Shown here piece after piece: positions 31,899 through 40,139 of a stretch of DNA of 64,000 bases. The position numbers and the translations under genes were made by a program. Each line of letters begins with the position of its first letter. Within the stretch, counting starts at the first letter, position 1. The notes beneath the pieces are model-generated. The model ran no database searches and was not told the origin of the DNA. It was given only the letters and a program-made list of their open reading frames with translations. Source of the stretch: Proteinivorax tanatarense (GTDB lineage Bacteria; Bacillota; Proteinivoracia; Proteinivoracales; Proteinivoracaceae). The stretch lies in the NCBI RefSeq assembly GCF_040267685.1, contig NZ_CP158367.1:372001-436000 (forward strand), given 5' to 3'.

Positions 31899-33996
31899 AT
31901 GTGCTTTAATTTTGAGTTTCTTAAAAAAGAAGAAAAGTATAGCTCTTTTAGTCAAGCTTGTATAGAGGCGGAAAAAAGTTTGGTAGTTTCTTATGCAACA
32001 ACAGCTATACTATCAAGGCGGGCGCTAGAACTTTCGGTGAAATGGTTGTATAGTTTTGATGAGGAGTTAACTGTACCCTATGATGATAAGCTTAGTGCCT
32101 TAATACATGATTTTAAATTTAAAAGCATCATAGACAGCCAGCTGTTTCCCATGCTTAAATTTATTCAAAAATTGGGTAACAAAGCGGTCCACTCGTCAAC
32201 ACCTATAACTAGGGAGCAGGCAGTGCTATCTCTTCGCAATCTTTTTGAGTTTATATCCTGGATAGATTATTGTTATTCTGATGAGTTTAACGAAGTCTCC
32301 TTTGACGAAAGCATTTTAGGAGATAACCAAAATCAGAAAAAGAGCAGAAAAGAGCTTGAGGATTTATATCAACGTCTAGGTGAAAAGGATAAAAAACTTG
32401 AAGAGATTATAAAAGAAAACCAACAACTTAGAAAACAAAACGCCGAAAAGCGGGAGAAAAATAGAAGAAATAGAGATTTCAATGTTGATGAAATCTCAGA
32501 GTTTAAAACACGCAAGATGTATATTGATTTAGAGCTTGAATTAAACAACTGGGTTTTTGGGAATGACTGTTTAGAGGAAGTTGAAGTTTCCGGCATGCCA
32601 AATAGCACGGGAAAAGGCTATATAGATTATGTCCTATATAGTGATGATGGAAAACCCCTAGCTTTGGTGGAAGCTAAAAAAACCAGCGTAGATCCTAAAA
32701 TTGGACAAGTACAGGCAGAAAACTACGCCAACTGCTTAGAGAAGCAATACGGTGTTAGACCGATTATCTTTTACACCAACGGCTTTGAGTACTACTTATG
32801 GGATGATAAAGCCTATCCAGAGCGAATGGTTTCAGGTCTTTATACAAAAGAAGAGCTAGAGTGGATGATTTTTAAGAGGCAGCATAAGCAGTCTTTAAAA
32901 AATCCTGAAATTAAAGACGAAATTACCAATAGACCTTATCAAAAAATGGCTATAAATGCTGTCTGTGATGCCGTTGATAGAGGTAATCGAAAGGCGCTGC
33001 TGGTAATGGCTACTGGTTCAGGAAAAACTCGTACCGCTATATCTATAGTTGAAATTTTAATCCGTAAAGGATGGGTAAAAAACGCCTTATTTTTAGCAGA
33101 CAGAACAGCCCTTGTAAAGCAAGCCAAGAAAAACTTTGGTTACTTACTACCGGAACTATCTTTGTGTAACTTATTAGACGGAAAAGATAATCCAGGAAGT
33201 AGGATGGTATTTTCTACTTATCCAACCATGATGAATGCCATAGACGATGTCAAAAGTAACAGCGGTGAAAAGCTTTATACAAGAGGCCATTTTGACCTCA
33301 TTATCATAGATGAAAGCCACCGGAGTATATATAAAAAATATCAGGCTATTTTCAACTATTTTGACGGAATTCTTTTAGGACTTACCGCAACACCTAGGGA
33401 TGATATAGATAAAAACACATATGAAATATTTGAGCTAGAAAACAATGTGCCCACCTACGCCTACGAACTTGATGAAGCTATAGATGATGAATATTTAGTT
33501 CCTTATCATACTATAGAGACCAAAATGAAGTTTATGGAAAAAGGTGTTCATTACGATGATTTATCAGAGAAAGAAAAGGAAGAATTTGAAGAAACCTTTG
33601 AAGATGGAGTCCGGGAGATAAGTGGAGAAGAGTTAAACTCCTTTTTATTTAACAGCGATACCCGTTGATAGAGTGCTTCAAGAGTTGATGGAAAAAGGTT
33701 TAAAGGTAGAAGGTGGAGATAAATTAGGAAAAACTATTATCTTTGCTAAAAACAAAAAGCATGCCGATTTTATTATAAAGCGGTTTAACATTCTATACCC
33801 TGAGTATAACGGCAATTTTACTAAACCTGTATATAACGGTATCAAGTATGTGGACAGTACAATGGACAACTTTGGCACAAAAGATAAGATGCCACAAATA
33901 GCAGTATCTGTTGATATGCTAGATACTGGTGTAGATATCCCTGAAATCTTAAAAAGCGGGGAACAGCTAGTTTTCAAACTAATATTCAGCAGCTAA
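31899..33996 (+). pseudogene. hsdR: Type I restriction subunit HsdR, frameshifted and truncated
   Basis: The first frame (589 residues) has an N-terminal DUF4145-like region, nuclease motif residues (YIDYVLYSDDG, ALVEAKK) and translocase motifs ATGSGKT, IIDESHRS and GLTATPR. It stops at 33668. One extra C in the CCC near 33660-33662 explains this: removing it gives SDTVDRVLQEL and continues in the next frame with KTIIFAKNKKHADFI and VSVDMLDTGVDIPE. That part then ends abruptly after about 105 codons, before the helicase motif VI (QMIGRGTR) and the C-terminal HsdM-docking domain. So the protein is doubly damaged. TGA is followed at once by TAG, ruling out readthrough. Confidence 0.93.
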
Positions 33997-35129: not shown

Positions 35130-35993
35130 TTATTTGCTCCCTTTATCTAAATATGAACACGCAGATAATGCTGCTATATTCCCTTCGCCTGCAGCTTTAA
35201 TGTATTGATAGGGTTGGCCTACAATATCCCCAGCAGCAAAACAACCATCGAGATTAGTTTTCATATTTTTATCAACTTCAACATGGTTATTTTTTACGCT
35301 TAAGCCTGGGACAAGATGAGCTGGTGATATACTATCACGTAGTATAAAAACTCCATCTATATCAAGAGTGGTGTTTTTTAACACTAACTTATCGGCTTTT
35401 TTAGTGCCTGTTATTTTTAGCGGGATATCTTTGATTACTTCTATGTCTTTATTTACGGCTATTTCTTCCTTATACATGGGGATGTAATAAACTTTAGAGG
35501 CTACAGTGGAAAGAAAATTTGCCTCTGACTCATCCTTTTTATTTTGGGCAATAACCGCCACAACCTTTCCTTTATACAGTGCAGCGTCACAAGTTGCGCA
35601 GTAACCCACTCCTTTGCCTAACCACTCCTCTTCGCCTTTAAAGGGCTTGCCAAAGTTAACACCTGAAGCTAGGATAATAGATGATGCTTCATATACCTTA
35701 TCATTGGCCATTAAAGCATAGTAATCCCCCATAGCGTAGATGTTGTTAATTTTCTCGTTAAAAATACTAATATTCATTTTTTTTAAGTGACTAGAGAAAC
35801 TATTTTTTAACTCTATCCCACTGACATTTGGGAACCCCAAGTAATTATCTATTTGCTTAGCTTTAATTAACTTATTACTTAAATCATCGGAACCGAAAAT
35901 AATAAAATTTTTTCCTCTTATTTTAGCATTTAATGCAGCAGATAATCCGGCAGGGCCGCTCCCCACTATAGCAATGTCATACCTAACTGACAT
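35130..35993 (-). CDS. Thioredoxin-reductase-like flavoprotein lacking the NADPH motif
   Basis: A 287-residue flavoprotein of the low-Mr thioredoxin reductase fold. It has FAD motifs IAIVGSGPAGLSAA and GCFAAGDIVG and the redox disulfide CATCDA. Where canonical enzymes have GGGNSA and HRRxxxR for NADPH, this one has AQNKKDES and IPMYKEE. That pattern is known from ferredoxin-dependent flavin thioredoxin reductase of clostridia and related NADPH-independent classes, so ferredoxin is a likely donor (inference). ATG at 35993 is chosen, with AAAGGGG upstream; GTG at 36002 is less likely. It lies about 20 bases after the stop of the HesB-like gene, in one operon. Confidence 0.88.
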   Translation of the reverse strand: MSVRYDIAIVGSGPAGLSAALNAKIRGKNFIIFGSDDLSNKLIKAKQIDNYLGFPNVSGIELKNSFSSHLKKMNISIFNEKINNIYAMGDYYALMANDKVYEASSIILASGVNFGKPFKGEEEWLGKGVGYCATCDAALYKGKVVAVIAQNKKDESEANFLSTVASKVYYIPMYKEEIAVNKDIEVIKDIPLKITGTKKADKLVLKNTTLDIDGVFILRDSISPAHLVPGLSVKNNHVEVDKNMKTNLDGCFAAGDIVGQPYQYIKAAGEGNIAALSACSYLDKGSK

Positions 35994-36013
35994 AATGACC
36001 ACACCCCTTTATC

Positions 36014-36301
36014 CTAAATATTTTTTAATTTAAATTTTCCTTTTCCAAATATACCTTTAGAAAAATCTAGTGTTTTGTTTTGAAAATAAATGCTTTGCTT
36101 TTTACTTAATAAAAAAGTAATGTCATGTTTAACTACTTTTTCATCATTTTCTTTTTGAGACTCTTCCAGAGTCACCTGTAATTGGGGGCCACCTCATCCT
36201 GGTGCCATAGATAACCTTATATAAACATCCCCAGGGTTTATTTTTTGGCTGTTAAGTTCCTTTATTAAATAGTCAGCAGCTGCCGTTGTAACATTAATCA
36301 T
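36014..36301 (-). CDS. HesB/IscA-like protein, probable selenoprotein with in-frame UGA
   Basis: Reading from ATG at 36301, eight bases after AGGAGG, gives 95 codons with one internal TGA at codon 36 (36194-36196) and a TAG end. Around it the protein reads SMAPG-U-GGPQLQV. HesB-like selenoproteins carry GUGGP exactly here and relatives have GCGGP, so TGA most likely encodes selenocysteine. Twenty bases after TGA is a 5-bp hairpin with loop TGGAA. The sequence is otherwise intact on both sides, with a family-like tail. It heads an operon with the thioredoxin-reductase-like gene. Without Sec insertion only a 35-residue peptide results. Molecular function of the family is not established; Fe-S or redox roles are suggested. 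Confidence 0.85.
36159..36173 (-). promoter_or_regulatory. Candidate bacterial SECIS hairpin
   Basis: GACTC-TGGAA-GAGTC on the minus strand, starting 20 bases after the in-frame TGA. Distance, short stem and G in the first two loop positions fit bacterial SECIS rules, but the stem is short and coding constraint is not excluded. Confidence 0.6.
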
Positions 36302-36535
36302 TTTTCGAACCTCCTATTTTATTAAATTAATACCCTACAGGGGTATATGGATAGTATATATTATTATTTAAATAATTACAACCACTATAATATAAGAGAA
36401 GTTTTTTAAAAATATATTATCATTCAAAATTAAGAAATGTAAGCTGTCACTTTGAATAATTTGTGTAAAAGGTGCCACTTTATGTATGGGATTTATTATA
36501 CTCTTGTTTAGGAATAGAAATTTTTCCTCAAGTGT

Positions 36536-36564: not shown

Positions 36565-36581
36565 AGTTTAAACTAAAATAG

Positions 36582-36666
36582 CTTATCAAGAATAGGGGAG
36601 AGAGTTAGCTCGTTGAACCTATGCCAACCTATTTTATAATAAGGTGGTTCTGCTAACATCGATAAG
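36582..36666 (+). ncRNA. Divergent S-box (SAM-I clan) aptamer without P4
   Basis: P1 is CTTATC/GATAAG with the flanking AAGA typical of S-box RNAs. P2 keeps S-box layout: TAGG/CCTA and GAG/CTC, followed by GTTGAA where S-boxes have ATGAA. P3 (CCAACC...AAGGTGG) matches the S-box GCAACC...AAGGTGC with a compensating base-pair change. The L2 segment GTTAGC is complementary over six bases to GCTAAC in J3/1, the expected pseudoknot. The P4 hairpin of SAM-I is absent, as in SAM-IV-like relatives. The ligand is probably SAM but not certain. A terminator follows directly. Confidence 0.72.
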
Positions 36667-36685
36667 AACGGATTACTTTGTTATA

Positions 36686-36742: not shown

Positions 36743-36847
36743 TTCTTATCAAGAGAGGTGGAGGGATCGGCCCTATGAAACCCGGCAACAGCCAGTTAAA
36801 ACTGGAAATGTGCTAAATCCTACAGCTTTAAAGCTGAAAGATAAGAA
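36743..36847 (+). ncRNA. SAM-I (S-box) riboswitch aptamer, canonical
   Basis: Contains all the S-box landmarks in order: TTCTTATCAAGAGAGGTGGAG with P1 left arm, GGCCCTATGAAACCCGGCAAC, GTGCTAAATCC, P4 hairpin CAGCTTTAAAGCTG and GAAAGATAAGAA closing P1. S-box RNAs bind S-adenosylmethionine and terminate transcription of methionine-related genes. It lies about 340 bases before an NhaC/MetT-type transporter gene. Confidence 0.95.
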
Positions 36848-37183: not shown

Positions 37184-38522
37184 ATGGGAGAAAATAAGAA
37201 TCATAAATCTAATGGATGGGCATTGTTACCGTTTTTAATTTTTGTAACAGTATTTTTGGGTGCTGGGATTATTTTAGAAGTTCAAGGTGTGGATATGGCA
37301 TTTTATGAATTTCCAGCACCTATAGCTGCTTTATGTGGTGTTATATCGGCTTTTATTGTGTTTAAAGGGACTATTAAAGAGAAAATTAACGACTTTGTAA
37401 AAGGTTGTGGCAATGAAGATATTATTACTATGTGTATTATTTATCTGCTAGCAGGTGGTTTTGCTGCGGTTACCGAAGCTATGGGAGGCATTGAATCTAC
37501 TGTAAACTTAGGGTTAACTTATGTGCCGGCACAGTATGTAACTGCGGGGTTATTTATAATTGCTGCTTTTGTTTCTGTGGCAACTGGATCATCTATGGGT
37601 TCTATTGCAGCAGTGGGTCCCATTGCAGTGGGAGTTGCTAACGCAGCTGGTACTGACTTAGCCCTTACCTTAGCCGCAGTGCTAGGTGGTTGTATGTGTG
37701 GCGATAACTTATCAATAATTTCTGATACAACCATTGCAGCTACACGAACTCAAGGTGTTGCTATGAAGGATAAATTTAGAGTTAACTTGTTGATAGTCAT
37801 GCCAGCGGCTCTGCTAACAATTGTACTATTAATTTTCTTTGGAAACCCAGAGAGAGTTGTAGAGATGGAAACATATGAGTATAACTTAATAAAAGTAATT
37901 CCTTACATCTGGAATGAATGTTTTTGTTGTGTTAACTGGTGGTATTTTTATTTCAGGAGTTATAGGAATTTTTTATAATCAGTTATCTATACTTTCATTT
38001 GCGCAGCAAACTTATCAAGGTTTTAGTGGAATGTTTGAGATTTTTTTGCTATCCATGTTTACAGGCGGACTGGCAGCTATGGTAACCAAAGCCGGGGGAG
38101 TACAATTTTTGCTGGATAAGATCCAAAAACTTATTAAAGGAACTAAATCTGCAGAGTTAGGAACAGCAGCTTTAGTTTCATTAACAGATGCTGCTGTTGC
38201 TAATAACACTGTAGCTATAATAATAAATGGTCCTATTGTTAAAGAAATTAGTAATAAATATAAGGTTGATCCTAGAAGAAGTGCTGCAATGCTAGATATT
38301 TTTTCATGCGTCATCCAGGGAGCAATACCTTATGGTGCGCAGATGTTGCTTATTGGCACACTCTCTGGAGGACAGGTTTCTCCATTAAATATTATACCGT
38401 TATTATGGTATCAAATGTTTTTAGCGGTAGCAGCTATAATTTCAATTTACATTCCTTATGCAAATGGTTTAATTAACAAAGAACCTTGGGACTGGGATAA
38501 AAAAGAAAAAGACGTAGCTTAA
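37184..38522 (+). pseudogene. metT: NhaC-family transporter (MetT-like), frameshifted
   Basis: Two overlapping frames together make one 11-12 helix transporter of the NhaC family. The 5' frame has GSSMGSIAAVGPIAVGVA and GGCMCGDNLSIISDTTIAAT, the family's core motifs; the 3' frame resumes at GMNVFVVLTGGI and contains TDAAVANNTVAIII and QGAIPYGAQML. The frame changes near 37905-37914, and around eight residues between VIPYI and GMNVF seem missing, so a short deletion is more likely than one base. S-box-regulated NhaC homologues have been predicted to be methionine transporters (MetT), and the riboswitches upstream support this. It is probably inactive unless the junction is an assembly fault. 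Confidence 0.85.
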
Positions 38523-38730
38523 AGTATTTTTACAGAAAACCTAAGTTTTGCTTATATCTTAATTGTTCCAGCTTTTAAAAGCGATGCTAAAAAATATATC
38601 TCGCTACAAAGTTTTTTTGATGGCCCCGTTTATTTAACCACTTATAAATATGTCACTAGACATTCCCCTCAGGTAGCTTGGGGGGAATGTTGTAGAGTTT
38701 TATAACAGCTATAAGCGTTACCCGTTATAA
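38523..38730. other. Intergenic region with a hairpin
   Basis: The inverted repeat ACATTCCCC/GGGGAATGT lies at 38660-38690 without a clear T-run. Otherwise nothing is recognised. The missing 5' half of the following aldolase gene was presumably deleted here. Confidence 0.5.

Positions 38731-40139
<1,409 letters not shown>

What the first reader, a model, noticed from the sequence alone, without database searches (positions are those of the whole stretch)
36014..36301. Hidden HesB-like selenoprotein gene with in-frame UGA
An uninterrupted frame except for TGA at codon 36 encodes a HesB/IscA-like protein in which U falls exactly in the GUGGP motif known from HesB-like selenoproteins, with a good ribosome binding site and a hairpin 20 bases after TGA. 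ORF callers miss it. It implies the organism has selA, selB, selC and selD.
Basis: partly seen in the sequence, partly recalled or inferred. Interest (0 to 1): 0.8.

Follow-up and report, generated by a model that had tools for sequence, protein, structure and literature searches.

The report
Overlooked HesB-like selenoprotein lacking cysteines
A small gene that ordinary annotation would cut short at a stop codon almost certainly encodes a selenocysteine-containing member of the known HesB/IscA-like family, and it belongs to a branch that has lost the C-terminal cysteines these proteins normally use, leaving one selenium atom as its only thiol-like reactive group.

Summary
With TGA read as Sec it gives a 95-residue HesB/IscA-fold protein with a GUGGP motif. 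Homologues with TGA at the same codon occur in 12 of 13 held genomes of the class. TGA-bearing homologues also occur in 71 of 398 sampled genomes of the phylum, 67 of which carry selA. A hairpin 25-26 nt after the UGA is kept across the UGA homologues scanned, with compensatory changes, and is lost in Cys homologues. So it is a real selenoprotein of an already known family (HesB-like, TIGR01911/NF038090). It scores below the NCBIfam cut-offs, so annotation may well miss it. Not predicted: it belongs to a strongly supported clade of 16 sequences without the C-terminal Cys motif. Fourteen of these have no Cys at all, and this is the only A-type-carrier-like gene found in the genome. Classical three-cysteine Fe-S scaffolding is therefore unlikely. 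A lone selenolate binding metal or sulfur is my favoured but untested mechanism.

The parts
36014..36301 (-). HesB/IscA-like selenoprotein gene: ATG 36301-36299, Sec-UGA 36196-36194 (codon 36), TAG 36016-36014; 95 aa, no Cys
36194..36196 (-). Sec UGA codon in the GUGGP motif
   Evidence: TGA at the same codon in 12 of 13 class genomes
36157..36175 (-). bSECIS hairpin (stem-GGA loop-stem), loop 26 nt after the UGA
   Evidence: absent in Cys homologues
36310..36315 (-). ribosome binding site AGGAGG, 8 nt before the ATG
   Evidence: read directly from the sequence
35130..36002 (-). downstream co-directional gene, 11 nt after the hesB stop: thioredoxin reductase closest to the 6gna/6gnb/6gnc/6gnd chains (E down to 1e-113), CATC active site, no GxGxxA NADPH motif; ferredoxin-dependent type inferred. 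Possibly one operon with hesB
   Evidence: adjacency not seen in relatives

Best explanation
It is a functional selenoprotein gene of the HesB-like family. SelB, Sec-tRNA(Sec) and the hairpin just after UGA-36 insert selenocysteine at the position of the first conserved cysteine of IscA-type proteins (Cys35 in E. coli IscA). The product has the IscA fold but lacks the C-terminal Cys-x-Cys tail, so Sec36 is its only thiol/selenol-type group. The most likely mode of action (inferred, not shown) is a lone selenolate that binds a metal or accepts sulfane sulfur (persulfide type) or an oxidant, and is recycled by a thioredoxin/ferredoxin-linked system, rather than building an Fe-S cluster on three cysteines. 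Decoding as Sec: about 0.97. Non-scaffold mode of action: about 0.5, and the sulfur/redox-handling version about 0.35. The confidence below is for the identity and decoding as a whole.
For: Decoding: full selA-selB-selD(Sec)-selC cluster in the genome; TGA at the same codon in 12 of 13 class genomes; 67 of 71 TGA carriers have selA against 190 of 327 other genomes (Fisher p 4e-10), and the Cys-only carriers have it in 10 of 25 (p 6e-8); hairpin at 25-26 nt in every UGA homologue scanned, with compensatory changes, lost in Cys homologues. Fold: AlphaFold pLDDT 93.6, best PDB matches IscA, SufA, HI1723 and DsrR. No tail: no Cys in the protein; tail-less sequences form one clade at 100/99, and 99/97 with the Sec and C-terminal columns removed. 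Sole PF01521 match in the genome. Context: thioredoxin reductase 11 nt downstream; in Cytobacillus pBO1 the tail-less homologue lies among rhodanese, TusA, DsrE and rhodanese-fused MBL hydrolase genes, and in Mesobacillus a rhodanese-like ORF follows it.
Against: No protein-level evidence. The window's own hairpin is not stronger than shuffles. The reductase neighbour is not conserved next to the gene in relatives, and neighbourhoods in the class differ. The sulfur-gene context comes from two plasmid loci only, and selA is not on those plasmids (their chromosomes were not searched). A dimer or tetramer with ligands from small thiols or a partner could still hold a cluster.
Confidence: 0.85

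Rival explanations
1. A pseudogene or short 35-residue peptide: TGA is a real stop in a decaying hesB gene.
For: Table 11 reads a stop at codon 36. Other genes in this window look broken.
Against: The frame is open to TAG after the TGA, and the same TGA is kept in 12 of 13 class genomes and in dozens of others; the sequence after the TGA keeps the family's residues; sel genes are present.
Confidence: 0.02
2. The organism reads TGA as an ordinary amino acid (reassigned code), not as Sec.
For: The frame is open if TGA is read as any residue.
Against: Complete Sec machinery with a UGA-reading tRNA-Sec; selD carries its TGA inside a GUG motif where selenocysteine is known; TGA-bearing homologues track selA across the phylum; a hairpin specific to the TGA forms.
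Confidence: 0.01
3. A selenium-containing A-type Fe-S carrier: Sec36 replaces Cys35 as cluster or iron ligand, the others being supplied by a second subunit or a small thiol, so that it does the job of IscA/ErpA/SufA.
For: IscA fold; only PF01521 gene found in the genome, so no Cys paralogue to do that job; Sec at the position of the first Cys ligand.
Against: The C-terminal Cys pair postulated to bind iron in IscA (PMC6495748) is missing in the whole clade. DsrR, one of the matched folds, is described as an IscA-like protein without iron or Fe-S binding (title cited in PMC11406059). Many anaerobes lack A-type carriers (own knowledge), so the job may not be needed.
Confidence: 0.3

Closest known systems
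HesB-like selenoproteins (TIGR01911 HesB_rel_seleno; NF038090 IscA_HesB_Se; UxGP motif in PMC13188914)
   Same: Small HesB-fold protein, Sec in G-U-G-G-P, bSECIS after the UGA, found with sel genes.
   Different: Scores far below both curated cut-offs (39.1 against 85; 28 against 66.35); lacks the C-terminal Cys seen in the 24 other Sec homologues compared.
IscA / SufA / ErpA A-type Fe-S carriers (PF01521, TIGR00049)
   Same: Fold and position of the first conserved Cys (here Sec).
   Different: No CGCG tail, Sec instead of Cys, below the TIGR00049 cut-off (35.5 against 58.8).
DsrR of Allochromatium vinosum (PDB 2k4z)
   Same: IscA fold; [quoted passage not shown]
   Different: Restricted to four phyla, mainly Pseudomonadota, and tied to regulation of sulfur oxidation; not a selenoprotein as far as I know; 18% identity in the fold match.
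M. maripaludis HesB-like selenoprotein (MMJJ_08070)
   Same: The one HesB-like selenoprotein with 75Se evidence met in the papers read; distantly related to IscA (PMC11097638).
   Different: Archaeal, with another type of SECIS; its function is also unknown, and a disruption mutant still fixed nitrogen.

Membership tests
Bacterial selenoprotein | In-frame UGA aligned with Cys/Sec of homologues | tested here: met
Bacterial selenoprotein | bSECIS hairpin: G in the first two loop positions, 16-37 nt spacing, MFE <= -7.5 | tested here: met
   spacing 26, loop GGA, -7.6 kcal/mol (criteria); covariation
Bacterial selenoprotein | selA, selB, selC, selD in the genome | tested here: met
Bacterial selenoprotein | Selenium in the protein product | not testable with these tools
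   needs 75Se labelling or mass spectrometry
HesB-like selenoprotein family | HesB/PF01521 domain | tested here: met
   33.7 bits against cut-off 26.3; IscA fold
HesB-like selenoprotein family | Sec in the U-x-G-P motif | tested here: met
   GUGGP (motif)
HesB-like selenoprotein family | Score above the curated NCBIfam cut-offs (TIGR01911, NF038090); an annotation threshold, not a biological feature | tested here: not met
   28.0 against 66.35 and 39.1 against 85; several UGA relatives with the tail also miss them, so the models are narrow. I file it in the family on domain, motif, SECIS and tree, not on these models
A-type Fe-S carrier (IscA/SufA/ErpA) | Three conserved Cys (35, 99, 101 in E. 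coli IscA) | tested here: not met
   Sec at the first position, both tail Cys absent
A-type Fe-S carrier (IscA/SufA/ErpA) | Binds and transfers iron or Fe-S clusters | not testable with these tools
   biochemistry needed

The most novel reading that the evidence does not exclude
The tail-less, mostly cysteine-free HesB-like selenoproteins are a functionally separate subfamily: an IscA fold turned from Fe-S cluster carrier into a lone-selenolate protein that handles sulfane sulfur, metal or oxidants, shared by a class of Bacillota-type anaerobes and by plasmids of soil and marine Bacillaceae.
Probability: 0.35. Interest if true: 0.6.

Novelty: new variant of a known kind. Interest (0 to 1): 0.42.

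Why it matters
HesB-like selenoproteins have been listed for about 20 years without a clear function. A natural clade with selenium but without the usual cluster-binding cysteines separates the two candidate roles: if Sec alone is kept while the tail is lost, the conserved chemistry is that of the selenolate and not of a three-cysteine cluster site. It also shows that the curated models miss UGA-bearing members of a whole class.

Tried and rejected
The + strand reading of the coordinates (stops). A chance open frame and a pseudogene. A reassigned genetic code. A conserved operon partner: the thioredoxin-reductase gene is not next to the homologues in relatives; one weaker match (31%) lies about 2 kb away in one genome, and neighbourhoods in the class differ. 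Viral collection: no relatives. The genome-contig scan with the protein found one distant relative only, also with UGA. The short model PF12390 found no selA, but the full selA model did.

Full report
What is there. The stretch 36014-36301 holds an open frame on the minus strand (36301..36014), not on the + strand. Its only internal stop is TGA at codon 36; with TGA read as Sec it gives 95 residues with G-U-G-G-P. AGGAGG lies 8 nt before the ATG. The product matches PF01521 (Fe-S_biosyn) above the curated cut-off. It also matches NF038090, TIGR00049 and TIGR01911, but below their cut-offs.

Sec machinery. In the same 3.09-Mb genome, selA, selB, selD and tRNA-Sec lie together at about 2.699-2.704 Mb. 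selD itself carries an in-frame TGA, and ARAGORN reads the tRNA as tRNA-SeC with anticodon tca. A search with the short PF12390 model missed selA, but the full model found it.

Conservation of the UGA. All five held genomes of the family and order and 12 of 13 of the class have the gene with an in-frame TGA, at the same codon where read; the thirteenth (G005) has selA but no match. In a sample of 398 genomes of the phylum, 96 have a homologue. TGA-bearing ones occur in 71 genomes, 67 of them with selA; the other four are G189, G240, G263 and G334, of which the last three are incomplete (63-79%) assemblies. Genomes with only stop-free homologues have selA in 10 of 25 cases.

SECIS. In the 31 UGA homologues scanned a hairpin of the bSECIS type has its loop 25-26 nt after the UGA (weak in L050). 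On a gapless alignment of 26 of them the 8-pair stem is 93.8% paired, with 13 double-changed cells and three pairs with changes on both sides. No shuffle out of 500 reaches the paired percentage, the double-changed cells or the covariation score, and sliding the partners destroys it. RNAalifold predicts the same stem. In six Cys homologues the same positions are 39.6% paired. In genome G015 both forms exist and only the UGA copy keeps the hairpin. The window's hairpin alone would not convince: -7.6 kcal/mol, no better than shuffles; 2.6% of synonymous recodings reach its local energy. It meets the published constraints.

Structure and the missing tail. AlphaFold with 21 sequences gives pLDDT 93.6. 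The best solved matches are IscA, SufA, HI1723 and DsrR. The protein has no cysteine. Among the homologues compared, 16 Sec sequences (12 genomes of the class, two Bacillaceae plasmids, two other genomes) lack the C-terminal tail cysteines; 14 have no Cys at all, and two (L043, L048) have one elsewhere. The 24 other Sec sequences keep one to three Cys near the C-terminus. The tail-less group is one side of a branch with 100/99 support, and with 99/97 after removal of the Sec column and the C-terminal columns. The search profile was built mostly from this group, so the numbers do not measure how common it is. This gene is the only PF01521 match in the genome.

Context. The next gene downstream (36002..35130) is a thioredoxin reductase whose best solved relatives by far are chains 6gnc, 6gna and 6gnd (E about 1e-107 to 1e-113; ordinary reductases 1e-36 or weaker). 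It has CATC but not the GxGxxA motif that marks NADPH-dependent enzymes (motif described in PMC10880999). I infer a ferredoxin-dependent type (FFTR); that these PDB entries are clostridial FFTRs is from my own knowledge. The adjacency is not conserved. In Cytobacillus plasmid pBO1 the tail-less homologue sits without a listed gene among rhodanese, TusA, DsrE, TauE and rhodanese-fused MBL hydrolase genes; in a Mesobacillus plasmid a rhodanese-like ORF follows it. No selA is on either plasmid.

Mechanism. Shown by comparison: UGA, SECIS and sel genes go together, so decoding as Sec is about 0.97 likely. Inferred: without the C-terminal cysteine pair (Cys99 and Cys101 in E. coli IscA; PMC6495748), classical three-cysteine Fe-S scaffolding is unlikely. 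A lone selenolate that binds metal or handles sulfane sulfur or oxidants, recharged by a thioredoxin-type system, is my favoured reading (about 0.35-0.5). A Sec-ligated cluster carrier is the main rival (0.3).

Known or new. HesB-like selenoproteins are an established family (PMC1794560; PMC13188914), so the gene as such is a new member. The tail-less clade looks like a new variant; I found no paper describing it in the open-access library, which does not prove that none exists.

Noticed in passing
36580-36668 and 36743-36847, + strand: Two SAM riboswitches in tandem (53.7 and 94.4 bits), each with a terminator-like hairpin at or after its end, upstream of a transporter-like gene that starts at 37184.
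   Followed up: partly
31899-33996, 37184-38522, 38520-39213, + strand: Several genes look broken: a type I restriction R subunit with a frame change near 33668 and an early end, a transporter with a frame change near 37915, and an aldolase-like gene without its N-terminal half. Either real decay or small assembly errors.
   Followed up: partly
L047 5001-5273 (Cytobacillus oceanisediminis plasmid pBO1) and L048 4920-5204 (Mesobacillus foraminis plasmid): Tail-less HesB-like selenoprotein genes, not listed in the gene table, with intact SECIS hairpins on large plasmids of Bacillaceae, next to sulfur-transfer genes; selA is not on these plasmids.
   Followed up: partly
L067/L077 (G015), L069/L078 (G346), L071/L086 (G385): Genomes with both a Cys and a Sec HesB-like copy; the tree places the three Cys copies inside a group of Sec copies, which suggests a Sec-to-Cys change with decay of the hairpin.
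   Followed up: partly
L029 3202-4122, - strand: A LysR-type regulator gene lies between selB and selD in the sel cluster.
   Followed up: no
L038 (G002 contig 11, 383-520): A second, partial hesB-like fragment without the Sec region near a contig end; possibly a remnant copy.
   Followed up: no
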